Of a DNA stretch of 64,000 nt, positions 29,186 to 40,555 are shown piece after piece (position 1 is the stretch's first letter; each line of letters begins with the position of its first letter). The position numbers were made by a program, and so were the translations under genes. The stretch is from NCBI GenBank assembly GCA_017547685.1, contig JAFYPD010000020.1:1-64000 (forward strand). The letters are read 5' to 3'. Source of the stretch: Peptococcaceae bacterium. GTDB taxonomy: Bacteria; Bacillota; Peptococcia; Peptococcales; Peptococcaceae. Below the pieces are notes generated by a model. That model searched no databases and had not been told where the DNA came from. It saw nothing but the letters and a program-made list of their open reading frames with translations.

Positions 29186-29200
29186 AAACTGCAAAATGAT

Positions 29201-29237
29201 ACAAAAACGCAGCGGCTGCGATCCGCTGCGTTTTTGT
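29201..29237. terminator. Bidirectional terminator between convergent genes
   Basis: The 15-bp perfect arms ACAAAAACGCAGCGG and CCGCTGCGTTTTTGT, with a 7-base loop, separate the hydrolase gene (plus) from the amidase gene (minus). Confidence 0.9.
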
Positions 29238-29267
29238 GTCCTTCCGTTGCTGTTCTTCTCCCGCCTG

Positions 29268-30185
29268 TCAGCCGGATACACAAACATCCTCTGTTTCAGA
29301 TTCATCGAACTGCCAGGTTTCCGCCTCCTCAACCGGAAGACCAGCCATCGCCCGCTCCATCGCTGTTTCAAAATCGCTAATTTTCAACAGGCCGCTGCGG
29401 AACTCGCTTTCCGTGTAATACTCCGGCGGATAGAGCAGAATCTTTTTCGTCTGTTCCTCGTAATACACCGCAAACCCCAGATTTTTGCTGAACTGCCGCA
29501 GCTGTACATAGTAACTGCCGTTGATGAATACAGCCGGGCAGGTACAGTTTCTGGCTGTGTTCAAATCCTCATTCACGATTTTATACCGCAGTGTCACAGT
29601 GCTGTCGGCAAGATAGGTAATACCGAAAAACTCCAGGATAGACCGCACATAGGCCTTGCTCAGCTTCTCAAGCTGCTCCGGCTGACTGTACCACACTGCC
29701 CGCGGCCCGTCGATAAAGAAGTTTTCCACCAGAATACACGACGTGTTTTCCTGTTTCAGCCAGCCCAGATTCCGGTTTGTTTTCAGCCCTCTGGTGTTCA
29801 CATTCAGATATTTACACACGTTCTCGTCAAACAGTTTCGCCATCTGCAGAGATGCTTTGCTGTGCTCCCACGGTTCCAGCTGATAATATACCTCAAAGCC
29901 GGTGCCGCCGCCCGCATTGGTGTGAATCTCCACCGCAAAGTCCGGTGCAAATGCATTGCACTCGGCAATTTCCTCTTTCAAGCGGTCTTCTTCATCTACA
30001 TTGCGGGACAGCTTTACCTGCACCCCGTGGCGTTTCAAATCATACTGCATCAGCATGGCAATGGTTAAATTGATGCCGGCTTCTTCCAGCGCAAGCGCTG
30101 TATTAACCGCACCGGGGTCCGTCCCGCCGTGGCCAACCCCGATAAAAATGCGAAGCGGGTTTTTAATGTAATCACGTTTTGTCAT
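29268..30185 (-). CDS. N-acetylmuramoyl-L-alanine amidase (Amidase_3), endolysin-like
   Basis: This 305-residue zinc amidase cuts the bond between MurNAc and the stem peptide. The catalytic domain, at about 12-190, shows FIGVGHGGTDPGAVN (first zinc His), FAVEIHTNAGGG (second His) and CILVENFFIDG (catalytic Glu). The C-terminal part (195-305) looks like a wall-binding or copper-amine-oxidase-N-like module (FINGSYYVQLRQFSKNLGF). There is no signal peptide, so export would depend on a holin, and a holin gene overlaps its start by 4 bp. This is the arrangement of a phage lysis module or its domesticated form. It is the last gene of a four-gene minus-strand unit. Confidence 0.88.
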   Translation of the reverse strand: MTKRDYIKNPLRIFIGVGHGGTDPGAVNTALALEEAGINLTIAMLMQYDLKRHGVQVKLSRNVDEEDRLKEEIAECNAFAPDFAVEIHTNAGGGTGFEVYYQLEPWEHSKASLQMAKLFDENVCKYLNVNTRGLKTNRNLGWLKQENTSCILVENFFIDGPRAVWYSQPEQLEKLSKAYVRSILEFFGITYLADSTVTLRYKIVNEDLNTARNCTCPAVFINGSYYVQLRQFSKNLGFAVYYEEQTKKILLYPPEYYTESEFRSGLLKISDFETAMERAMAGLPVEEAETWQFDESETEDVCVSG

Positions 30186-30376
30186 GGCATTTCTCCTTTC
30201 TTATCCCACCATACCCACAACGCCGATACCGTAGTAAACAGCGCTGTCAGCAGTTCACTCAGTTCCTCCTCCGAAATGGGAAGAATGGTATAGCCAAACA
30301 CCATCAGCAGCTGGTTGAGCAACGCCGCAAACAGCACGATAGTGCGAACCAGCACAGCAATTTTTTCTTTTGACAT
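30182..30376 (-). CDS. SPP1-type holin family protein
   Basis: This 64-residue membrane protein has a first helix of VLVRTIVLFAALLNQLLMVFG and a second of LTALFTTVSALWVWW, with a charged end. The RTIVL..LLNQ and ILPISEEELSEL pattern matches SPP1-type phage holins, which make membrane pores that release an endolysin. The ATG has GGGAGG eight bases upstream. It is translationally coupled to the amidase gene. No other phage structural genes are near. Confidence 0.8.
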   Translation of the reverse strand: MSKEKIAVLVRTIVLFAALLNQLLMVFGYTILPISEEELSELLTALFTTVSALWVWWDKKGEMP

Positions 30377-30505
30377 TTCTTACGCCTCCCTGGTTGTAAT
30401 CGTATTGCTTCAGCACGGGCGCAACCCAGCGTGAAGAACCCTGTTTCTATACAGAGCAGATTTCTCCCCGCGCCGTTTTGCCCCGGTTATACTGGCATGC
30501 TGCAA

Positions 30506-30736
30506 TTAAAACAGCACGTTTTCAATGGTCTTCTGAATTTTCGCTGTTTCGGCTACTGCCAGCGGGTCACCGTCGGCGTACTGGAATACCCCTTTGCTGA
30601 TGATCGTGTCCATATTGGTGGATACGGTTTCTGCATCCAGGGTATCCAGCGCATCCTTCACAGTGATATTCATGCTGTTTCCTGAATCGGAGCTGAACCC
30701 CATAATTAATTTCTGACTTGTTACGACTTCTGCCAT
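30506..30736 (-). CDS. DUF2922 family small protein
   Basis: This 76-residue protein has KLIMGFSSDSGNSMNITVKDA split near residue 25, matching the small DUF2922 family of Firmicutes (YvlD/YqzC-like size; function unknown). There is no signal peptide or membrane helix. It is almost always found beside a DUF1659 protein, as here (46 bp downstream of it). Its presence between DUF1659 and holin-amidase genes suggests a role tied to those, but this is inference. A gap of about 130 bp to the holin holds no clear terminator. Confidence 0.7.
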   Translation of the reverse strand: MAEVVTSQKLIMGFSSDSGNSMNITVKDALDTLDAETVSTNMDTIISKGVFQYADGDPLAVAETAKIQKTIENVLF

Positions 30737-30782
30737 ATTTCAATTCCTCCTGAATATTTTGATTTGATTATTGATTTTTGTT

Positions 30783-30980
30783 CTACTCGGTAATATCACT
30801 TGTTACAACCTTCTGATACCCCACCACATTCTTGCTCTGCATATCACTTAAGATGCGCATAGCACTGGCGACGCTTGCGTCAGACGCCTCAGGATTGATG
30901 CCGGAATAAGTCTGACTGCCGGCTTTGCCCTCGTCGGTCTCGGTTAAAAATTTTGCTTTTACTGTATTTGCTGCTGCCAT
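30783..30980 (-). CDS. DUF1659 family small protein
   Basis: This 65-residue protein (MAAANTVKAKFLTETDEGK...) ends with IRILSDMQSKNV-like DUF1659 sequence. Function is unknown. It is soluble and small, first in the DUF1659-DUF2922-holin-amidase unit. A region with 20-bp-spaced TAACCA motifs lies 147-210 bp upstream of its start. Confidence 0.7.
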   Translation of the reverse strand: MAAANTVKAKFLTETDEGKAGSQTYSGINPEASDASVASAMRILSDMQSKNVVGYQKVVTSDITE

Positions 30981-31126
30981 TGTACATGTCTCCTTTTTGA
31001 CTCATTAAAATTTAGATTAGATGTGCTATCATGATAGGTTTTATTGTTCCGGGCAGGCCCTTACCCTGGTTATATTATAGCGCAGCGCCTGCGGCTGACA
31101 CAAAATTGGTCATTCTGCCCTTTCGC

Positions 31127-31219
31127 TGGTTAAATGCAGGCAAATAACCAATCTATTTTTCGAATAACCAGTGCCTGCACCGGCTAACCAAACCTGCAAA
31201 AAAGTTTTTCGCTCAACCA
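31127..31219. repeat. TAACCA motif array, locus A
   Basis: The motif occurs inverted at 31127-31132 (TGGTTA) and direct at 31145-31150, 31165-31170 and 31185-31190, the three direct copies exactly 20 bp apart. A variant CAACCA is at 31214-31219. The same motif and spacing recur at 37359-37510. It lies before the DUF1659 operon and looks like an operator or iteron set. No gene is trusted in 30981-31557; a 64-codon ORF there is an antisense or chance frame. Confidence 0.65.
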
Positions 31220-31330
31220 GTATGGTTTCAGCTGTTTTTGCAAAAGTATTTAACACAGTTTCCACCTCAGATACATCACAAAAAAATCGGATGACTGCTG
31301 TCACCCGATCTGAAAAATTCTGAATTATGT

Positions 31331-31423
31331 AAAAAAGCCGGAACAGACAGTTTGCTCACTGGCTTTCCTCGCCTCTTTGGACATTGCCTTGCCTGTTCGC
31401 AATTCTATCTGTTCCGGTTTTAT
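31331..31423 (-). terminator. Long-loop terminator of the surface-protein gene
   Basis: The arms CCGGAACAGA (31338-31347) and TCTGTTCCGG (31408-31417) enclose a 60-base loop. A T-run follows on the minus strand, and a shorter one on the plus strand. Confidence 0.6.
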
Positions 31424-31557
31424 ATAAATTTTATCTTATCATTTGTAATAGATTGCAGGGGCGGAACCGGCGCGCCTTTCTGCACCGAACCACATCCGCC
31501 CGCATTTCCACGCAGAACTGCATCGCCCCAATGAATGCCATTCCAGAAAGACAAGTC

Positions 31558-34500
31558 CTACTGTTCAATCATAATCTGCTGTGTTGCTGCAATCCATTCT
31601 ACGTTAGCACCCAGTTTTTCCGCTACATAACGGATTGGCACATAGGTACGGTCGCTGATGATGGATGCAGAAGTACCAAAGCCTGGAATTGGCTGGTCGA
31701 TAACCAGTTTCATCACTTTGCCGTCGATGGTTAAAGTAACCGTGCGAGTTGCATCGTCCCAGTCGGCAGTGCCGCCTAACAGTTCGGTTACAATACGAAC
31801 CGGAACCAGAGTGCGGTCACCCACGATTACAGGAGCCACATCATTGGTGATGGTTCTGTTGTTTGCTACAATGTTTTTGTTGTTAATCTGCATTACAATA
31901 CGCAGGTCATAATCCGCTGCTTCTGTAGTCACAGCTACAGTTACTTTGCCGGCAGGCATTGTAAAACTGTATTTGTTGTCGCCCACTTTTGTTACAGGGA
32001 TTACATCACCATCTGTATCGGTCACAATCACTTCATCCACCTGTTTGCCCAGAGCAGGGTCAACGGTAATGGTTACTGTTTCGCCGGCAACTGCATAGTT
32101 CTGGTCAGCTGTTACAGCTGCACCAATGGTATCCGCAATATTTACCGGATAGTTGTACTTGCCGGAGAAACCGCCGCCGGAAGAAGAACTGCTGGAAGAT
32201 GCTTTTGTTACAGTCACTGTACAGGTAGCAGTTTCACCATTTGCGATTTTTGCTGTGACAGTTGCAGTACCTTCTTTTGCACCTGTTACGTTACCCATTT
32301 CATCAACAGTTACAATAGTTGTATCAGAAGATGTCCATACAATTTCATCAGTTGCATCGCTCGGAGCAAGTGTTGCTGTTAATGTTACGGTTTTACCGCA
32401 TTCCACACTCACTTCGTTTTTTACGAAAGTAATATCAGTAGCAGGAATAATCAGATTTTTTAATTTCCCATCTTCAAATTTTTCATAATAAGAAGCTACT
32501 GTCACAGCTGTGCCGCTTACTACAGGTGCACTTTCACCATCCCAGTAGTTTGCATCTGCAGAAACTGTTGTATCTGCTGTTGTACCGCTGATATGAGTTG
32601 TACCTAAAACAGCATTTTCTTCCATACTGATATTCGCATTTGCTGCGGAATCACGCAGTATGATAACTGCATCTCCATCATCACAGTTACTGCTTAATAC
32701 ATTGTTCTTAATCACAAAAGTTTTTGTGACAGTTGAAGTACTGCCATCTACGCCTGCACGAATCGCATAACCTTTTACAGCAAAATCGCATCCGGTCATT
32801 GCAAGACTTACAGTGTTGTTAATGTTTACACCATTTTTAGATTTTACAACACAGTCAGAAATAGCAAGCCCTTCTTCAACATTGGTTACCTGCAGCAGGG
32901 AATGCATGTTTTCAGAAACAGTACATCCCGTAATGATAAGGTTTTTATCGCCGCCAGTATAGGATTTAATGGCAACTTTGTCGTCTGTACCATTATAGTC
33001 AAAAGTACAGTTTTCAACTGTTACATGGTTCGTATAACGGGTATTACTGTTACCGGAAACGCCAAGGTTAATATATGCAGCAGGGCTATTTTTATCGGAA
33101 AGGAAATTCACATTCTTGATAGTAACACCTGCTGTTTCATATCTTGCACTCTTACCATCCACAGTAATTGAGCCGTTCATTGTTTTGCCTGAACCGTCAA
33201 TGGTAATTTTAACAGTTTCCGCCTGAACTACAGTTACATCTTCGGTTACATCTGTAAGCAGAGTAATGGTATCGCCGTTTGCAGCTGCATCAATTGCAGA
33301 CTGTAATGTTGCATAGTTGGTACTGCCAATTTTAGCAGCAGCCATATTATCTGGAATAACCAGTTTAACAGTATTGTTTTCTGCGGTTAACGTACCTTCA
33401 CCTGTGGTATTATAAGCAGAACCTACCAGCCCGTTATTTGCAAACTCCGTAACTCCAGGACTGGTTAATGCACCAGTATAAGAGCAATTCTGAATGGTAA
33501 CGGTTGTCCCGGTCTCGTTATGCCATACACCTGCGATGCCGCCAATTTCCAGTTCTGGTGTATCACCAGCATCTGTGATTGTTACATCGCCTGTGCAAGT
33601 GCAATTGATAAATTTGTTATTGTAATGCGCAATGCCGGTAATGCCGCCAACATCACAGGTAGAGCCAATAACATCAATGTTAGAGGTTACATTTTCTACC
33701 TTGTGACCACCTTCACCCATAAAACCTACAACACCGCCAACATAGGTACGATATGCAGTACCATTTTCAACGGAATCAGCGTTTACATAACTGGTATCGT
33801 CAACATCAACCGTAATGCTGGTTAAGTCTGCATAAGCATTTTTCCCGACAACACCGCCAACATATGCCATACCGTTCACTTCAACATGACCAGTTACTTT
33901 AATGTTAGTATATTTGCTGGTATATGGCGTACCTGCAACAACACCAACATTTAAACGTCCAGAAACTTTAGCATTATTTACTGTCAGATTTTTCACTTCG
34001 CCATTTGCGGTATGGCCAAATAAACCTGCATTGCTATTGTTACCGGTAATGGTCAGATTGGAAATAGTATGATTATCACCATCGAAGGTGCCCTCGAATT
34101 TGTTTGTACTATTTCCAATAGGTGTCCATTCTTCGTTATTTAAATCAATATCAGCAGTTAAATATACTGTTTTTTTAGAATAACTGTTGCCGCTATTTAC
34201 CGCATTAGCAAATGCAGCTAATTCGTCTTTGGTGGCAATATAATACTTGTCTCCATCTACCTTGGTTTCACCGCCAACTGTAACGCTTAACTTATTACCT
34301 TTTTTCCCGTTATATAACGAATTTCCACTTATGGTACCTTTACTAAAACCTGTTGCGGTTGTTTTATCATCAATTACAAGCTTACTGCCTTCTGGCATTA
34401 AACTTGTATCGATTTCAATAGCAGCTTTACCTTCCACAGGTGCAGAGGCGTTAAATTCGCAATCAGTTACAGTAAGAACAGTTGCACAAGCGCCTTCGTT

Positions 34501-35034
34501 ATAAACTAAAACACTTTTACCGGCACTGTTAAATGTGCAGTTTTCGAATTTTACCGCTTCGGAGCCATAGGTCCAGATGTTGTAAGCATCGCTGCTTTCC
34601 TGATTAAACACACAATCAGTAAATTCAGCTGTAACACCGTAAGTCCAGTACTGACCATTGATAATGCAATTATCATAAGTTTCACGATTTACATGATGGA
34701 AACCTTTATAATTTACATTATCTCTTTCCAGTGTCAGATTTTCAAAAATCAGATCTCTGCTACTTGCAGCATTTGCTGTATCCCCTAAATCCAGCACAAC
34801 ATCTTTTGTGGCACCAACAAATTTCAAGTCTTTATCGATGTTTCCTGTCAGAGTAGTATCTGCAAGAATTTTGATTGTGCTGCCAGTTGTGTTTGCAACT
34901 GCATCAGCTAATGATGTGAAATAAACACCTTTGTCATCGACAGCGACATTTTCTTCCGCCATTGCTGCAACCGGCATCAGTGTGAACAGAAAGCACACCA
35001 ATGTCAGAATTGCAAATAATTTTTTGTTTTTCAC
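31558..35034 (-). CDS. Large secreted beta-helix/GLUG surface protein
   Basis: This 1158-residue protein has a signal peptide (cleavage near AMA-EEN, residue 26). Residues 40-240 and 570-860 are right-handed beta-helix-like, rich in short N/C/T turns. A GLUG-type region spans about 290-540 (NAGLFGHT, YVGGVVGKNA, YVGGVVGFMG, DVGGITGIAH). A Big_2 domain lies at 863-943 (SSDTTIVTVDEMGNVTGAKEG split), then a Ser/Gly linker at 945-956. The C-terminal 1048-1158 holds a copper-amine-oxidase-N-like module with two VGDRTLVPVR/ISDRTYVPIR repeats, probably a wall or envelope anchor. There is no LPXTG or SLH motif. The start is GTG with AGGAGG eight bases upstream. It is probably an adhesin or glycan-binding protein; the ligand is unknown. 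Confidence 0.85.
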   Translation of the reverse strand: MKNKKLFAILTLVCFLFTLMPVAAMAEENVAVDDKGVYFTSLADAVANTTGSTIKILADTTLTGNIDKDLKFVGATKDVVLDLGDTANAASSRDLIFENLTLERDNVNYKGFHHVNRETYDNCIINGQYWTYGVTAEFTDCVFNQESSDAYNIWTYGSEAVKFENCTFNSAGKSVLVYNEGACATVLTVTDCEFNASAPVEGKAAIEIDTSLMPEGSKLVIDDKTTATGFSKGTISGNSLYNGKKGNKLSVTVGGETKVDGDKYYIATKDELAAFANAVNSGNSYSKKTVYLTADIDLNNEEWTPIGNSTNKFEGTFDGDNHTISNLTITGNNSNAGLFGHTANGEVKNLTVNNAKVSGRLNVGVVAGTPYTSKYTNIKVTGHVEVNGMAYVGGVVGKNAYADLTSITVDVDDTSYVNADSVENGTAYRTYVGGVVGFMGEGGHKVENVTSNIDVIGSTCDVGGITGIAHYNNKFINCTCTGDVTITDAGDTPELEIGGIAGVWHNETGTTVTIQNCSYTGALTSPGVTEFANNGLVGSAYNTTGEGTLTAENNTVKLVIPDNMAAAKIGSTNYATLQSAIDAAANGDTITLLTDVTEDVTVVQAETVKITIDGSGKTMNGSITVDGKSARYETAGVTIKNVNFLSDKNSPAAYINLGVSGNSNTRYTNHVTVENCTFDYNGTDDKVAIKSYTGGDKNLIITGCTVSENMHSLLQVTNVEEGLAISDCVVKSKNGVNINNTVSLAMTGCDFAVKGYAIRAGVDGSTSTVTKTFVIKNNVLSSNCDDGDAVIILRDSAANANISMEENAVLGTTHISGTTADTTVSADANYWDGESAPVVSGTAVTVASYYEKFEDGKLKNLIIPATDITFVKNEVSVECGKTVTLTATLAPSDATDEIVWTSSDTTIVTVDEMGNVTGAKEGTATVTAKIANGETATCTVTVTKASSSSSSSGGGFSGKYNYPVNIADTIGAAVTADQNYAVAGETVTITVDPALGKQVDEVIVTDTDGDVIPVTKVGDNKYSFTMPAGKVTVAVTTEAADYDLRIVMQINNKNIVANNRTITNDVAPVIVGDRTLVPVRIVTELLGGTADWDDATRTVTLTIDGKVMKLVIDQPIPGFGTSASIISDRTYVPIRYVAEKLGANVEWIAATQQIMIEQ

Positions 35035-35111
35035 GTTTATCTCCTCCTAATAAAAATTGATATTGCTACGCCGGACAGTTCTGGTGCAGGAATCGCCCGG
35101 CAGACTAGCCT

Positions 35112-35316
35112 TTAGATTGTCTGTTTGTCTTTCATCGCCTCATAGCTCTGCAGATACTCTGCTGCTCTGGCCTTATCCGCAAACCATCTGCCCGATACGA
35201 AGCAGAAACAGTGCTGTATTGCCCGGCAGCACGGCCGAGCCGTATACCGTACGCTGGTTCTCTTCTGTGATTTTGTAAATATCGATATCCTGCAAAAAAA
35301 GTTCCCCCTTTGCCAT
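35112..35316 (-). pseudogene. Possible frameshifted small gene
   Basis: From an ATG at 35316 the frame reads MAKGELFLQDIDIYKITEEN and on to FLLRIGQMVCG, then stops near 35173. A shift of one base near 35180 continues as GRWFADKARAAEYLQSYEAM and ends at 35112, a natural-looking charged C-terminus. The two parts together would make about 68 residues. Either one base is lost, or the two frames are unrelated. I do not recognise the family, and the ribosome site (GGAG, two bases away) is poor. Confidence 0.35.
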
Positions 35317-35356
35317 TTCTCCGGTACAGCTATCCAGATTTTGTGTGATTTTGTTT

Positions 35357-35406
35357 CCAGAAATTAGTGTACAGAAATGTATACTTTTCCGGACACTAAT
35401 TTCTGG
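35357..35406. repeat. Near-palindrome centred on GTATAC, copy 1
   Basis: Fourteen-base perfect outer arms CCAGAAATTAGTGT/ACACTAATTTCTGG surround an imperfect inner palindrome centred on GTATAC. A related copy in the same orientation is at 35477-35525. Confidence 0.7.
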
Positions 35407-35415
35407 CAATAAAAA

Positions 35416-35451
35416 AGTGGATATTTAGGGCTGAAACCCTAGATATCCACT
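35416..35451 (-). terminator. Terminator after the ComK-like gene
   Basis: The arms AGTGGATAT-TTAGGG and CCCTAG-ATATCCACT have one G-U pair. Six T follow on the minus strand. It lies between the two GTATAC palindromes. Confidence 0.85.
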
Positions 35452-35476
35452 AGATGTAGTGATTTTATATGTACTT

Positions 35477-35525
35477 TTGTTTCCAGAAACTGGTGTGCAT
35501 AAAAGTATACTTTTCTGGACACTCA
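35477..35525. repeat. Near-palindrome centred on GTATAC, copy 2
   Basis: It shares TTTGTTTCCAGAAA, GTGT and GTATACTTTTC-GGACACT with copy 1. Its core AAAAGTATACTTTT is a perfect 14-bp palindrome at 35501-35514. The outer right arm has diverged. The 35035-35639 interval holds the two copies, the terminator and the possible pseudogene. Confidence 0.65.
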
Positions 35526-35639
35526 CAATGTATGATTTTTCAGTATTATTTTACACGAACCTGTCCGGTTTGTCTACGTATATCTGCAGATAATTTCGTC
35601 AATTTCCACTTTTTTGTAACACTTCGCGCTATCAGCTGA

Positions 35640-36221
35640 TTATGGTTCCGTTTTTTTTCGCCGGATGCTCCTTTTCCATGCCTGCAGCTGTTCTTCCTGC
35701 TCTTTCTGCTTCTGGTTCTTCTCCACATAGCGGGCCAGGCTGTTGGCGCCGCGGCTCATCTGCAGTTCCACCGTTTCTTTTCGCTGCGGAATCAGCAGCC
35801 CTTTGTGTCTCTCGTGAAAAAACAGCATGGTGCCGTAAGGCTCCACCTCCACCGCATAGGCAATGGCATGCATAGATACATAGCCCAGTGTGCCGGTGTT
35901 GCGGCCCGTCTCCTCCCGGCATTTTAACGGCAGCAGGCACAGGTTTTCATGTACCACCAGCACCAGCCTGCGCTTTGCATCATCTTTCGCCAGTTCTTTT
36001 GCCAGTTTCTGCACAGCGGCCAGCGATGTATGATGGTACTCCATCCAGCGTTCCAGCACGCGCTCGCAGCGGTTGTATACCAGCTCATAGTTGCCGTCGG
36101 TGTAGTGAATCTGGCTGCCGGTGCGGTTTTTGCCGTAATAATAGGGGATCACCGCCGCCACCCATCTCCATTTCACTTCATCCAGCGTCACCACACGGCA
36201 CGGTTTTTTTGTGTATTTCAT
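35640..36221 (-). CDS. Possible ComK-like regulator (uncertain)
   Basis: This 193-residue soluble protein has an order of features that reminds me of ComK, the Bacillus competence regulator: a basic N-terminus with AAVIPYYYG, an ELVYNRCERVLERWMEYHHTS stretch in the position of the ComK 'ACLxxGSTYEGR' helix, a VVHENLCLLPLK strand, and a C-terminal LLIPQRKETVELQMSRGANSL that resembles the ComK 'G..V.L.VS..S...Q..R' end. A charged 25-residue tail follows. Similarity is weak and by eye; a phage or mobile-element regulator is also possible. The ATG has AAAGGAG upstream. It lies about 170 bp after the DnaD-like gene. Confidence 0.4.
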   Translation of the reverse strand: MKYTKKPCRVVTLDEVKWRWVAAVIPYYYGKNRTGSQIHYTDGNYELVYNRCERVLERWMEYHHTSLAAVQKLAKELAKDDAKRRLVLVVHENLCLLPLKCREETGRNTGTLGYVSMHAIAYAVEVEPYGTMLFFHERHKGLLIPQRKETVELQMSRGANSLARYVEKNQKQKEQEEQLQAWKRSIRRKKTEP

Positions 36222-36389
36222 ATGCAGTCTCCTTTCCAGGTATTGAAAATCATTGCATGCAGTATAGCATATTTCCAGATTTTCGAAAGATTTTGTCTGC
36301 TTTTGTAATTATATTATAACAATTCTGTTCCTTTTCACCTGTTTTTAATGTATTACTACGCATTTATACAAATATTTTGTTAATCCGGC

Positions 36390-37280
36390 TCAGCGTTCCA
36401 GAAAGGATAAGTCTCTGCCTTCCGGTTTGAACTTCTGTATCGGGGACGATTTCGCCCATGGCTTCTGATACGCTTTCTGCTGTTTTTCCTCCTGCCTGAT
36501 CAGCTTTGCCCCGCTTGGCTTCGGCGTTACCTTCAGCTCATAAAATCCTTTCCAGCGCCGTTTCACGGACTGCTTTACAATCTCAGCCATAGCGGCAGCA
36601 CAGCCGCCTGCCAGGGCAATCAGCTTTTTCAGTACTTCCTCCAGCCCCCACAGGGTCAGTGTCCAGCCGTTTGCTTTACGCATCTCCGCCCACTGCAGCA
36701 ACTCTGATTGCAGGCCGGAACCGAACCGGTCACAGAAGGCTTCGATGTACGGGCGGTACTGACTGGTGAGGATGATGTCACCGGAAGGAAGGGTACGGCT
36801 GGACATGTCATTCTGAGCGAAGCGAAGAATCTCGTCTGGGTGAAACGATCCTTCGACTCCGGCCCGCCGGCCTTCGCTCAGGATGACAGATTTGTGTTCT
36901 GACTCAGTCTGCGGGTACGCTCCGGCGCAGAACTGTGTGCCAGCGGCACCAGTCCCTGCAGCATCACTCATTCGAGCCGGTGTATCTGCAGATTTTTCCC
37001 CCACCACGCTGCCGTTCAGGAGCAGGGTGTAATAAATCTGCTGATGCTCGTCCTGCCGGATGGATAAAAAGCCTTTGTCGATTAAGGTCTGTCGCATAGC
37101 CTGCAGGCCCTGGCGGGTTACATCCAGCATGGCGGTCAGAACACTGGTGTTCTGCATCACATCGGCAAACACGCCTTTGCGGTGCATGGTGAAATACAGG
37201 TACTGCCACAGCAGAATGGCTCCTGCGGATAAATTCTGTTTTGCGGCGCAGTGGTTGAATCGTTCAATGGCGTATAACAT
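36390..37280 (-). CDS. DnaD/phage replisome organizer-like protein with in-frame repeat
   Basis: This 296-residue protein starts with a winged-helix pattern, LSAGAILLWQYLYFTMHRKG to LDVTRQGLQAMRQTLIDKGF, close to the N-terminal domain of phage replisome organizer/DnaD-like proteins. The C-terminal half (about 165-265) has helices ending KRRWKGFYELK, similar to the DnaD-like 'xxWxGFxxLK' tail, then a basic end. Between them, HKSVILSEGRRAG to EILRFAQND is encoded by an inserted palindromic repeat (36806-36888). The ATG has AGGAGG seven bases upstream. The upstream 80-230 bp carries the TAACCA array, so it may bind that DNA as initiator or repressor. Calling it a Rep protein is inference. Confidence 0.55.
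   Translation of the reverse strand: MLYAIERFNHCAAKQNLSAGAILLWQYLYFTMHRKGVFADVMQNTSVLTAMLDVTRQGLQAMRQTLIDKGFLSIRQDEHQQIYYTLLLNGSVVGEKSADTPARMSDAAGTGAAGTQFCAGAYPQTESEHKSVILSEGRRAGVEGSFHPDEILRFAQNDMSSRTLPSGDIILTSQYRPYIEAFCDRFGSGLQSELLQWAEMRKANGWTLTLWGLEEVLKKLIALAGGCAAAMAEIVKQSVKRRWKGFYELKVTPKPSGAKLIRQEEKQQKAYQKPWAKSSPIQKFKPEGRDLSFLER
36806..36888. repeat. Palindromic repeat (REP/MITE-like) inside the DnaD-like gene
   Basis: An 83-bp element has near-perfect 17-bp ends, TGTCATTCTGAGCGAAG and CTTCGCTCAGGATGACA, one mismatch apart. The motif GTCATTCTGAGCGAAGC-GAAGAATCTC is a familiar interspersed palindromic repeat in several bacterial phyla. It adds residues without breaking the reading frame. 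Confidence 0.75.
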
Positions 37281-37358
37281 GGCGGTTCCTCCTGTTCCCC
37301 GTGCATCGGGTTCTGTTTGTCACACAGTATACCGCATCAGCGCGCATGGTGTCGAACC

Positions 37359-37510
37359 TGGTTATTCTATGCTTTCACTGGTTATTTAGGGGGAAATAAC
37401 CAATGAATCTGCAGAATAACCAATGATTTCAGGGGAATAACCAAGATTGGGTATTATTTTTTGTGTCAACCATCGAGGTGCAGCGGTATCAGGGCAGAAA
37501 AAAATAACCA
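37359..37510. repeat. TAACCA motif array, locus B
   Basis: Inverted copies TGGTTA are at 37359-37364 and 37379-37384. Direct copies TAACCA are at 37397-37402, 37417-37422, 37438-37443 and 37505-37510, with a CAACCA variant at 37467-37472. Neighbours are spaced about 18-21 bp over the first five, giving the extended form GAATAACCAATG. Arms TGGTTATTT/AAATAACCA form an inverted repeat in the middle. It lies upstream of the DnaD-like gene. Confidence 0.75.
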
Positions 37511-37555
37511 ATGCAGACTTCCTGATGGTTCGGCTGCGGGCTTCGCCCTTTGCGT

Positions 37556-37590
37556 AATGTTTTTAATGTTTTTAATGTTTTTAATGTTTT
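37556..37590. repeat. 9-bp AT-rich tandem repeat
   Basis: About four copies of AATGTTTTT run in tandem, followed by further AT-rich DNA to about 37650. It lies next to the TAACCA array, a layout seen in iteron origins, where an AT-rich stretch melts first. Confidence 0.7.
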
Positions 37591-37670
37591 ACTATGTTTT
37601 TATTATGTTTTATGTTTTGATGTTGTATGTAATATTTATAATATATAAGCGTTTGTAGAATGAAAGGTAA

Positions 37671-37699
37671 AGAAAAAGGTGCCAAGCATGGTTGGCACC
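37671..37699 (-). terminator. thiI terminator
   Basis: The arms GGTGCCAA (37678-37685) and TTGGCACC (37692-37699), with a T-rich run on the minus strand, lie 20 bp after the thiI stop. Confidence 0.85.
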
Positions 37700-37718
37700 C
37701 AATGTAATCTCTGTTTTC

Positions 37719-38969
37719 TTATGCTTCTGTTTCTTCCGACAGGTCTGTTTCCGATAAAATCACTTCATCGGCACTGCGGCGGCGTTCCGGTTTGTCTTTT
37801 CCGTACATGATAATCCGTTCGGTATTGGCTACCGCATCGGCAATGAGTTTATCCAGCTCCAGTTTTTCTTCTTCTTTTTCGCAGGCATCCACTTTTGGTC
37901 TTGTTTTCGGCTCTTTCGGCACAAAAACGGTGCAGCAGTCTTCATAGGGCAGAATGGATGTTTCGTATGTGTCAATCTGCTGTGCCAGACGGATGATTTC
38001 CTCTTTCTCCATGGTGATGCACGGCCGCAGAATCGGCATGGCTGCCACATTGTTGATGGCATAGATGCTCTCCATGGTCTGGCTTGCCACCTGACCCAGG
38101 TTATCGCCGGTGAAAATAGCCAGGCAGTCGCGCCGGCGGGCAATCTCCTCGGCAATGCGCACCATGATGCGGCGCATAATTGGAATGCGCATGTTGTCGT
38201 GGCAGTAGTGGGCAATTTCTTCCTGAATTTTGGTAAACGGCACCATATGCACCACAACGCGGTTGGAGTATCTGGCCATCCGTTTTGCCAGTTCCAGCAC
38301 TTTTTCTTTTGCTTTTTCGCTGGTGTACGGATAACTGTGGAAATGCACAGCCTCCACGGTCACGCCGCGTTTCATGGCCAGCCAGCCGGCCACCGGGCTG
38401 TCGATGCCGCCGGATAACAGTACCACCCCTCTGCCGCTGCTGCCAACCGGCAGCCCGCGCAGCCCCGGATAGCTGCGGGTGTAGATGTAGGTGCCGTCGG
38501 TGCGGATTTCCAGCAGCAAATCAATATCATAGTGATGCAGATCGGCTTTTAACCCCGGCACGTTTTTCAGCATATGGGCAGCGATAATCTGCTGCATTTC
38601 CGGAGAGGTCACCGGGAATTGTTTGTTGGCCCGTTTCACACTGACACGGAACCGGCTCGGGCCGCTGATTGCCGCGCGCAGTTCTCCCAGCGCTGCTGCC
38701 TTGATGTCCTCCAGCGCAAAGCCGGTTTTGCGGGCCGGGCTGTAGGAGGAAATGCCGAATACATGATTCAGCGAATCGTAAAACAGTTCCGGCGCTCTGC
38801 CTTCCAGTTTCAGATACAGGCGCCCCATCTCCCGCTCAATGACCGGGTTGATGTCTAAATCGGTTTTTACCTGTTCTTTGATATTATGCACCAGACGATT
38901 TAAAAAATCTTTCTGGTTTTTCCCTTTCAGCGCAATTTCGGCGTATCGAATCACAATATGATCGTACAT
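37719..38969 (-). CDS. thiI: tRNA sulfurtransferase ThiI
   Basis: This 416-residue enzyme adenylates and sulfurates U8 of tRNA to 4-thiouridine, and in many bacteria supplies sulfur for thiazole synthesis. An N-terminal ferredoxin-like/THUMP region (1-165) begins YDHIVIRYAEIALKGKNQKDF split. The PP-loop is VVLLSGGIDSPVAGWLAMKRG split, near 185. It lacks the C-terminal rhodanese domain, as is normal in Firmicutes. The start at 38969 (MYDHIV) is chosen; a GTG four codons earlier lies directly on the ribosome site. It follows the helicase gene by about 20 bp on the same strand. Confidence 0.95.
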   Translation of the reverse strand: MYDHIVIRYAEIALKGKNQKDFLNRLVHNIKEQVKTDLDINPVIEREMGRLYLKLEGRAPELFYDSLNHVFGISSYSPARKTGFALEDIKAAALGELRAAISGPSRFRVSVKRANKQFPVTSPEMQQIIAAHMLKNVPGLKADLHHYDIDLLLEIRTDGTYIYTRSYPGLRGLPVGSSGRGVVLLSGGIDSPVAGWLAMKRGVTVEAVHFHSYPYTSEKAKEKVLELAKRMARYSNRVVVHMVPFTKIQEEIAHYCHDNMRIPIMRRIMVRIAEEIARRRDCLAIFTGDNLGQVASQTMESIYAINNVAAMPILRPCITMEKEEIIRLAQQIDTYETSILPYEDCCTVFVPKEPKTRPKVDACEKEEEKLELDKLIADAVANTERIIMYGKDKPERRRSADEVILSETDLSEETEA

Positions 38970-38989
38970 ATCATCAATCACTCCTGCTA

Positions 38990-40555
38990 TTATTCAGCTG
39001 ATTTGTTTTTCTTGTAGCTTTTCTTGCCGTCCCGGCCACAGGTTTTGTGTTTCCCTGCTTTATTGCTGTGATCGTTTTTCTTGCCGCTGTCTTTTTTGAT
39101 AGCGTCTTTTTTGAAATTTTTTTTATATTTGCCGTCGCCGCCAAAGCGGTTTCCGCCGCGGCCATCGCTGCGATGACCGTTTTTGCCTTTGCCGCCGTCT
39201 TTTCTTGACTCTTTCAGCCGTTTCACATAGATTGGCCGTTCAGCAGACAGGCGGATTTCTTCCACATCTGCTTCATGGCCGCCATCGCCTGCCATCAGCT
39301 CCAGCACTGCGGCCAGGGCATCCACACTGCCATACTCCTGGATCAGGTCGTTGGCAAATTCCTGATAATCCAGCACATGCCCGTCTTTGATGGCGGTTAC
39401 GATTTTCCCGTACAGGATATCCTGTTTTTTCTGGCGGCTGTCCTGTGCCGACGGCAGTTTGGTTCTCTGCAGCTTGCGCTGGATGGTTTTTTCAATCAGT
39501 TTCAGGTGGGGCAGCTCGCGCGGCTCCACAAAAGTCAGCGCGATGCCCTCTTTCCCGGCACGGCCGGTACGGCCAATGCGGTGTACATAGTTATCGATTT
39601 CCTGCGGCAGGTCAAAGTTAAATACATGGCTGACGCCGGTAACATCCAGCCCGCGGGCGGCCACATCGGTGGCAACCAGAATATTAATCTGCCCGTTGCG
39701 GAATTTGTTCATTACAATGTCACGGTGCCGCTGGGTCAAATCCCCGTGCAGCCCTTCGGCCTGATAGCCCAGTTTCTGCAGGGCTTCGGTCAGTTCATCC
39801 ACGCGGCGTTTGGTACGGCCAAACACCATGGCCAGTTCTGGATTATGGATGTCCAGCAGGCGGCACAGCAGTTTGAATTTATCCTGCTCCGGCACTTCAA
39901 AGTACTGCTGTTCAATGGATGGCACCGTCAGTTCCTGTGCTTTTACTTTCACCAGCACAGGCTCTTTCATGAATTTGTTGGCGATGGCTTTGATTTCATC
40001 CTTCATGGTTGCAGAGAACATCATGGTCTGCCGTTGTTCCGGACAGGCGCCCAGAATGGTTTCAATGTCTTCTAAAAAGCCCATATTCAGCATTTCGTCG
40101 GCTTCGTCCAGTACGATCATTTTCAGATGGTCCAGACGGATGGTTTTGCGGTTCATATGGTCCATCAGACGGCCCGGTGTTGCCACAATCACCTGCGGAC
40201 GGCCCTTCAGTTCCCGAATCTGACGGTTAATGTCCTGACCGCCGTACACCGCTGCCGATTTGGTGCGCAGATATTTGCTCAGCTTTTTCACTTCTTTTTC
40301 CACCTGCATGCACAGCTCTCTGGTTGGTGTTAAAATCAGCACCTGTACAGCTGGTTCATTGCCTAGCAGCTGCAGGAACGGAATGGTGAAGGCAGCCGTT
40401 TTGCCGGTGCCGGTCTGGGCCTGGCCAATGACATCCTGGCCTGTTAACGCAACTGGAATGGCCTGTTCCTGAATCGGCGTTGCTTCTGTGAAGCCCATAT
40501 CCTGAATGGCTTTCAAAATTTCTTCTTTCAGATTTAATGTTTCAAAATTTAACAT
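38990..40555 (-). CDS. DEAD-box ATP-dependent RNA helicase (CshA/DeaD type)
   Basis: This 521-residue helicase unwinds RNA in decay, ribosome assembly or cold adaptation. The Q motif is in GFTEATPIQEQAIP, motif I in AQTGTGKTAAF, then PTRELCMQ, DEADEMLNMG, FSATM and HRIGRTGRAG. A C-terminal tail of about 75 residues is very basic and low in complexity (Lys, Gly and Asn), a likely RNA-binding extension. It is closer in size to CshA than to the longer DeaD. It starts its own unit upstream of thiI. Confidence 0.93.
   Translation of the reverse strand: MLNFETLNLKEEILKAIQDMGFTEATPIQEQAIPVALTGQDVIGQAQTGTGKTAAFTIPFLQLLGNEPAVQVLILTPTRELCMQVEKEVKKLSKYLRTKSAAVYGGQDINRQIRELKGRPQVIVATPGRLMDHMNRKTIRLDHLKMIVLDEADEMLNMGFLEDIETILGACPEQRQTMMFSATMKDEIKAIANKFMKEPVLVKVKAQELTVPSIEQQYFEVPEQDKFKLLCRLLDIHNPELAMVFGRTKRRVDELTEALQKLGYQAEGLHGDLTQRHRDIVMNKFRNGQINILVATDVAARGLDVTGVSHVFNFDLPQEIDNYVHRIGRTGRAGKEGIALTFVEPRELPHLKLIEKTIQRKLQRTKLPSAQDSRQKKQDILYGKIVTAIKDGHVLDYQEFANDLIQEYGSVDALAAVLELMAGDGGHEADVEEIRLSAERPIYVKRLKESRKDGGKGKNGHRSDGRGGNRFGGDGKYKKNFKKDAIKKDSGKKNDHSNKAGKHKTCGRDGKKSYKKNKSAE

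What the first reader, a model, noticed from the sequence alone, without database searches (positions are those of the whole stretch)
31127..37510. Same 20-bp-periodic TAACCA array at two distant intergenic loci
Two gene-free stretches about 6 kb apart carry the same motif, extended form GAATAACCAATG, spaced about two helical turns. Locus A (31127-31219) has one inverted and three direct copies exactly 20 bp apart plus a CAACCA variant. Locus B (37359-37510) has two inverted and four direct copies with 18-21 bp steps, plus a variant. Both lie 80-230 bp upstream of a minus-strand gene start: the DUF1659-DUF2922-holin-amidase unit and the DnaD-like gene. Shared iterons before two operons suggest one DNA-binding protein, most simply the DnaD-like or ComK-like product, controlling both. 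I know no description of such a link between a lysis-type cassette and a replisome-type protein.
Basis: partly seen in the sequence, partly recalled or inferred. Interest (0 to 1): 0.75.

Follow-up and report, generated by a model that had tools for sequence, protein, structure and literature searches.

The report
Initiator-type iteron arrays controlling lysis operons
In one genus of gut Peptococcaceae, a family of chromosomal genes resembling phage replication starters carries arrays of short repeats spaced 20 bp apart next to their own promoters, and the same repeats sit before a small holin-amidase (cell-lysis type) operon, with different gene copies using different, matching repeat sequences; the link looks real and undescribed, but no binding has been shown.

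Summary
In 1.67 Mb of this genome, four or more TAACCA within 110 bp occur only at the two reported loci (0.01 expected). The exact motif is absent from 59 relatives, but the architecture is not. The DnaD-like gene belongs to a genus-restricted, multi-copy family of phage O-like initiators. Most copies have a ~20-bp-stepped array near the -35 box, and the array sequence differs between copies. DUF1659-DUF2922-holin-amidase promoters of the genus carry such arrays too, usually with the motif of a DnaD-like gene in the same genome: two separate sets here (TTGGTTATT; GCAGGATAA), two more in a goat-gut relative. The same operon in 10 genomes outside the genus, and in a genus member without the family, lacks promoter arrays, even where a ComK-like gene is adjacent. 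The DnaD-like cassettes also carry an invariant CTACRAAYGCTTATA element, very AT-rich DNA, and a C-terminal tail shared with the housekeeping DnaD. Best reading: the arrays are iterons/operators of the DnaD-like initiators, which autoregulate and co-control a lysis-type operon with orthogonal specificities. Binding, direction of control and origin activity are inferred. ComK-like as array binder is disfavoured. One relative's array is an orphan.

The parts
31127..31190 (-). Locus A array: 3 direct + 1 inverted TTGGTTATT-type sites (TAACCA core) with 20/20/18-bp steps upstream of the DUF1659 operon promoter
31104..31115 (-). Degenerate promoter-proximal site (GAATGACCAATT) next to the -35 of the operon
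31193..31221 (-). Motif-independent shared element ACTGGTTGAGCGAAAAACTTTTTTGCAGG upstream of the array; a similar block recurs before arrays of other motifs (own C24, G005 C34, C36 and C37 operon, G004 C13 operon)
31074..31101 (-). Sigma70-type promoter of the operon: GTGTCA-16-TATAAT
31051..31066 (.). Palindrome-like GGGTAAGGGCCTGCCC just after the -10, shared with operons of G002, G003, G004 and G005
30783..30980 (-). DUF1659 protein (PF07872)
30506..30736 (-). DUF2922 protein (PF11148)
30182..30376 (-). SPP1-type holin (PF04688)
29268..30185 (-). N-acetylmuramoyl-L-alanine amidase (PF01520; PHROG endolysin)
35640..36221 (-). ComK-like protein (sub-threshold PF06338); relatives lie next to the operon in other families
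36390..37280 (-). DnaD-like / phage O-like initiator: wHTH (1-90), helical domain (about 170-245), tail KFKPEGRDLSFLER shared with housekeeping DnaD
37326..37355 (-). Sigma70-type promoter of the DnaD-like gene: TCGACA-18-TATACT
37359..37443 (-). Locus B array: 3 direct + 2 inverted TTGGTTATT sites, 18-21-bp steps, abutting the -35; same 3+2 geometry as the C24 paralogue with another motif
37505..37510 (+). Outlying TAACCA copy, not in step with the array
37555..37660 (-). AT-rich (84%) AAAACAT-repeat stretch, the most AT-rich 100 bp of the window; unwinding-element candidate
37644..37658 (-). CTACAAACGCTTATA, exact matches only in genomes with the DnaD-like family; the own-genome copies and all inspected copies lie upstream of DnaD-like genes
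37677..37700 (-). Terminator-like hairpin GGGTGCCAACCATGCTTGGCACC-T5 at the outer edge of the cassette

Best explanation
The arrays are iteron-type binding sites of a genus-specific family of chromosomal phage-O/DnaD-like initiator proteins. Each DnaD-like gene is a compact cassette of about 1.4 kb: AT-rich stretch with CTACRAAYGCTTATA, a paralogue-specific 20-bp-phased array, a sigma70 promoter, and the initiator gene. The initiator binds its array next to the -35 box and autoregulates. The same motif placed next to the -35 of a DUF1659-DUF2922-holin-amidase operon puts that lysis-type operon under the same protein. Paralogues with different motifs form parallel, non-overlapping sets (TTGGTTATT: DnaD-like 36390-37280 with the operon at 29268-30980; GCAGGATAA: contig C24 with the operon on C53). 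Shown: arrays, geometry, promoter position, motif pairing, genus restriction, shared C-terminal tail. Inferred: that the DnaD-like protein is the binder, that the effect is on transcription (I favour activation, because the sites lie upstream of the -35 on one helical face), and that the cassette is or was a replication origin.
For: Unique clusters: TAACCA clusters only at A and B, ATCCTG clusters only at the C24 DnaD-like promoter and the C53 operon promoter in 1.67 Mb. Cross-motif matrix: the window motif hits its own promoter (7), the own operon (4) and a G004 operon (3), 0-1 elsewhere; the C24 motif hits C24 (6), C86 (2), C53 operon (5), G005 C35 gene (5) and operon (6). In this genome the paired gene and operon regions share the motif without being alignable by blastn across the arrays, so simple copying does not explain it. 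20-bp chains of 4 or more sites in 13 of 20 genus regions, against 2 sites in 11 of 12 regions from genomes lacking the family, and 1 of 128 shuffles. Promoter-proximal site within a few bp of the -35 in most promoters. All 11 family members match PHROG 678 'replication initiation O-like'; confident wHTH. Tail KFKPEGRDLSFLE shared with the DnaB_2-domain housekeeping DnaD of this genome, G005 and G006, and changed in parallel in G004 (VDLSFLEE in both). CTACRAAYGCTTATA exact only in genomes with the family.
Against: No binding data. The recognition helices of the window and C24 proteins differ at one residue (A61T), which does not track the motif in G005, although the arrays differ strongly. 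G005 has an orphan operon array (GTCCTTAAT, only at C14), and two of its DnaD-like genes have a second array (TTGCTTATT) of unknown owner. In G003 the seen gene and operon arrays do not match; G003 is 68% complete. G005 pairs are partly explained by recent copying (83-84% over 103-148 bp). C94 has lost its array; C86 is a fragment. Operon promoters lack the AT-rich element, so origin activity there is unlikely.
Confidence: 0.6

Rival explanations
1. The arrays are operators of another, unlinked regulator (one per motif); the DnaD-like genes are merely targets, like the lysis operon.
For: Near-identical recognition helices with different arrays; orphan array in G005; two arrays with different motifs before one DnaD-like gene.
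Against: Array presence follows the DnaD-like family: operons in 10 genomes outside the genus and in G002 (no family) lack promoter arrays. No other gene type with such arrays emerged from the unbiased scans except more DnaD-like copies and one unrelated Fic gene.
Confidence: 0.2
2. Remnants of dispersed mobile rep-ori cassettes: the arrays were replication iterons, spread by copying, and the operon arrays are passengers or fossils without present regulatory function.
For: Cassettes copied to unrelated sites (G005 C34/C36 up to 94% identical with unrelated flanks; own C107/C67/C94), several decayed; YhgA/Rpn-like genes on the same contigs.
Against: Own-genome pairs share only the motif and the position next to the -35, not flanks; the pairing operons are intact and promoters are kept; sites are more conserved than the spacers between them.
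Confidence: 0.13
3. The ComK-like protein binds the arrays.
For: A ComK-like gene lies next to the DnaD-like gene or the operon in several genomes.
Against: ComK-like plus operon without promoter arrays in other families; one ComK-like gene but at least two array specificities in this genome, and none near C24 or C53. The shared motif-independent element ACTGGTTGA..AAAAA.TTTTTT could be its site instead (guess).
Confidence: 0.05
4. Chance or low-complexity repeats.
For: The 12-mer alone is not enriched.
Against: Genome-wide uniqueness of the clusters (expected 0.01) and recurrence of the same architecture in relatives.
Confidence: 0.01

Closest known systems
Phage lambda O / Gram-positive phage replisome organisers with iteron origins (PHROG 678 'replication initiation O-like')
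   Same: wHTH-type initiator, array of ~20-bp iterons, adjacent AT-rich stretch, tail apparently feeding into the host primosome; all 11 members match PHROG 678
   Different: Chromosomal, multi-copy, no phage genes nearby, no viral or phage carrier found; iterons upstream of the gene rather than inside it, and also placed before a separate lysis operon
RepA_N plasmid and satellite initiators (pTZ2162, pSK41, PLE RepA; PMC7145576)
   Same: DnaD-type N-terminal domain binding iterons, host-specific C-terminal part; Foldseek lists 4pql and 5kbj ('Rep-DNA complex', which I take from memory to be the pTZ2162 RepA N-terminal domain) among weak wHTH matches
   Different: No PF06970 match; Foldseek E only 0.07-0.1 among MarR hits; no plasmid or satellite context
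Bacillus DnaD (PMC10201434)
   Same: N-terminal wHTH with weak DnaD_N scores; C-terminal tail shared with the local DnaD
   Different: Bacillus DnaD recognises single-stranded TnnT repeats at oriC through its C-terminal tail; no iteron array or autoregulation is described there
ComK autoregulated competence switch
   Same: ComK-like gene in the neighbourhood; an autoregulated switch is the functional analogy for coupled control
   Different: The array is not a ComK box and does not track the ComK-like gene

Membership tests
Phage O-like replication initiators (PHROG 678) | Profile match of the protein | tested here: met
   11 of 11 members, best E 2.5e-10; window protein 5.6e-7 over residues 194-275
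Phage O-like replication initiators (PHROG 678) | Encoded in a phage genome or prophage | tested here: not met
   Housekeeping neighbours (thiI, DEAD-box helicase, rodA-like, minD); no phage or viral contig relative
RepA_N (PF06970) | Pfam match to PF06970 | tested here: not met
   No PF06970 for the window protein or 4 paralogues
RepA_N (PF06970) | DnaD-like winged-helix N-terminal domain | tested here: inconclusive
   wHTH modelled at pLDDT about 90; best structural hits are generic wHTH proteins, 4pql/5kbj at E 0.07-0.1
Iteron-type origin | Two to seven repeats of about 17-22 bp (PMC4980987) | tested here: met
   5-site chains, 18-21-bp steps
Iteron-type origin | Adjacent AT-rich unwinding element | tested here: met
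   84% AT, maximum of the window, about 110 bp beyond array B; absent at array A
Iteron-type origin | DnaA boxes in the origin | tested here: inconclusive
   Nearest good match TTATCCGCA at 37224, inside the gene
Iteron-type origin | Supports autonomous replication | not testable with these tools
   Needs a plasmid assay
ComK (PF06338) | Pfam match above cut-off | tested here: not met
   19.9 bits against cut-off 22.3; G003 relative 20.8
Shared regulon (gene plus operon under one factor) | Same motif at both promoters, next to the -35, not clustered elsewhere | tested here: met
   (70% of the genome held)
Shared regulon (gene plus operon under one factor) | Binding by one protein and co-expression | not testable with these tools
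   No expression or binding data

The most novel reading that the evidence does not exclude
The cassettes are live ectopic chromosomal origins. When a DnaD-like initiator is switched on it fires local replication from its own cassette and at the same time turns on a holin-amidase operon, giving programmed local DNA amplification and lysis (a DNA-release system of phage ancestry, linked to a ComK-like competence regulator), run as several orthogonal copies per genome.
Probability: 0.1. Interest if true: 0.93.

Novelty: new variant of a known kind. Interest (0 to 1): 0.72.

Why it matters
It would be a chromosomal, domesticated use of phage-type initiator/iteron modules as transcriptional switches for a lysis-type operon, with several mutually exclusive DNA specificities evolving side by side in one genome. 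That gives a natural set for studying how initiators change sequence recognition. It also gives a first lead on what controls the DUF1659-DUF2922 operons, on which the held literature has essentially nothing.

Tried and rejected
Literal-motif search in relatives: none in 59 genomes; misleading because motifs diverge. RNA explanation: no Rfam match in 29200-39100. Defence-system reading: no PADLOC match. Phage, viral and plasmid carriers of the cassette or protein: none, apart from one weak Bacteroides plasmid hit. ComK-like as array binder: rejected on distribution. Solved-structure sequence search: only weak wHTH hits. L247 (G015) shows a degenerate 20-bp AAGCAAGG repeat some 200-290 bp upstream of its DUF1659 gene, away from the promoter, and is not counted as the same thing. 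L185:13055 is a copy of a dispersed repeat, not a promoter array. Literature searches for the combination found nothing relevant.
Full report
OBSERVATION. Locus A has three direct copies 20 bp apart and one inverted; locus B has two inverted and three direct copies in 18-21-bp steps; B's fourth direct copy (37505) is out of step. The motif by itself is ordinary. Its clustering is not: in 1.67 Mb of own sequence held, four or more TAACCA within 110 bp occur only at A and B (0.01 expected), and paired AATAACCA at ~20-bp steps occurs nowhere else in the 2.37-Mb genome.

FAMILY. The DnaD-like gene behind array B is not a singleton. The protein matches five places in this genome and several in G003-G007 of the same genus; a profile search finds it in 6 of 8 genus members and, apart from one weak hit, in none of 13 other genomes of the order. 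All 11 aligned members match PHROG 678 'replication initiation O-like'. The model has a confident N-terminal winged helix, a disordered linker, a helical domain and a short tail. The tail (KFKPEGRDLSFLER) is the tail of the housekeeping DnaD (DnaB_2 domain) of the same genomes, and in G004 both carry the altered VDLSFLEE version. I infer a common primosome partner. Named relatives are Peptococcaceae MAGs from ruminant gut (G005 has contigs of the same lengths as RGIG1748, goat cecum).

ARRAYS DIVERGE, GEOMETRY STAYS. Upstream of the paralogues lie arrays with the same ~20-bp step but different sequence: GCAGGATAA (own C24), TTATCCTGC (G005 C35), GCAGGAGAA plus TTGCTTATT (G005 C34, C36), CAGATAAAT (G003), ATAAGCGGA (G004 C17), TGCAATATA-type (own C107 and its decayed copy C67). 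The window and C24 promoters share the 3-direct-plus-2-inverted layout at nearly the same distance from the start codon. The site nearest the gene lies within a few bp of a sigma70 -35 box in most cases.

THE LYSIS-TYPE OPERON FOLLOWS. The DUF1659-DUF2922-holin-amidase operon exists twice here and in several relatives. Operon promoters in the genus carry arrays too, and mostly with the motif of a DnaD-like gene in the same genome: window operon with window gene; C53 operon with C24 (and the two sites of C86); G005 C35 operon with G005 C35 gene; G005 C37 operon with G005 C34/C36. The two own sets do not cross-match. In this genome the pairs are not alignable by blastn across the arrays, whereas in G005 they are, so recent copying explains part of the G005 similarity but not the own pairs. 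The G004 operon has the window-type motif; most of its DnaD-like genes lie on contig ends and their promoters could not be read. G003 is unpaired but 68% complete. G005 C14 is a true orphan: its GTCCTTAAT array is found nowhere else in that genome.

CONTROLS. Outside the genus the operon is common (10 of 13 genera in the order) and has ComK-like neighbours in several genomes, but without promoter arrays. G002, a genus member without the DnaD-like family, also has operons without arrays. So arrays track the DnaD-like family, not the operon and not the ComK-like gene.

ORIGIN-LIKE PARTS. Upstream of the array each class-1/2 cassette has CTACRAAYGCTTATA (or a close variant) followed by an AAAACAT-rich stretch, at the window the most AT-rich 100 bp of the 64 kb. 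The 15-mer occurs exactly three times in this genome, each before a DnaD-like gene; exact matches were seen only in G000 and G003-G005, all carriers of the family, and in none of the other 36 genomes searched. Copies at unrelated sites share only the ~1.4-kb unit from this element to the stop codon. The parts list (initiator, iterons, AT-rich DNA, host-type tail) is that of a rep-ori module, but no replication was or could be tested, and operon promoters lack the AT-rich part.

MECHANISM. Most likely the DnaD-like protein binds its array, autoregulates and controls the operon. Against it stands the nearly identical recognition helix of proteins with different arrays, so recognition would have to involve other residues, or another factor binds. 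Direction of control is a guess: activation, from sites upstream of the -35 on one helical face; iteron initiators often autorepress (general knowledge).

LIMITS. All genomes are draft assemblies; own genome 93% complete in 108 contigs, about 70% scanned for unbiased arrays; cassettes tend to break contigs. Literature searches of the held library found no description, which is not proof of absence.

Noticed in passing
L081 9796-10789 (own C86): DnaD-like gene truncated and joined to the 3' part of an amidase gene; G005 C37 has the intact order DnaD-like, ComK-like, DUF1659, DUF2922, holin, amidase at the syntenic place, so this looks like a deletion scar.
   Followed up: partly
L048 8486-8556 (own C108): GGAATAA/TTATTCC array with about 20-bp steps upstream of a Fic-family gene with an N-terminal HTH; a separate autoregulation-like array.
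   Followed up: partly
L179 5447-6385, L083 1776-2881, L124 4950-5897, L081 2048-3082, L090 1762-2043: All YhgA/Rpn-like (PF04754) genes found in held own sequence lie on contigs that also carry DnaD-like copies, and one lies before a DUF1659 operon in G005; possible mobility partner.
   Followed up: partly
L036 3327-5101, L035 1-240, L037 1-240: A phage-type DnaD helicase-loader gene with two TTGGTTA sites and ATGCATAA repeats upstream; about 130-240 bp of this upstream DNA recurs at the ends of two other contigs, so this cassette looks multi-copy too.
   Followed up: partly
window 36805-36895: The linker of the window DnaD-like protein seems to contain an in-frame copy of a dispersed repeat (CATTCTGAGCGAAGCGAAGAATCTC..CTCAGGATGACA), similar to L185 12970-13060 and absent from the paralogues.
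   Followed up: no
L247 940-1020 (G015): Degenerate 20-bp tandem repeat AAGCAAGGTA between a sugar-biosynthesis-type gene and DUF1659 in another family, away from the promoter.
   Followed up: partly
L246, L250, L253, L254: ComK-like relatives lie next to the DUF1659-DUF2922 operon in other families and genera of the order, an association I found no paper on.
   Followed up: partly
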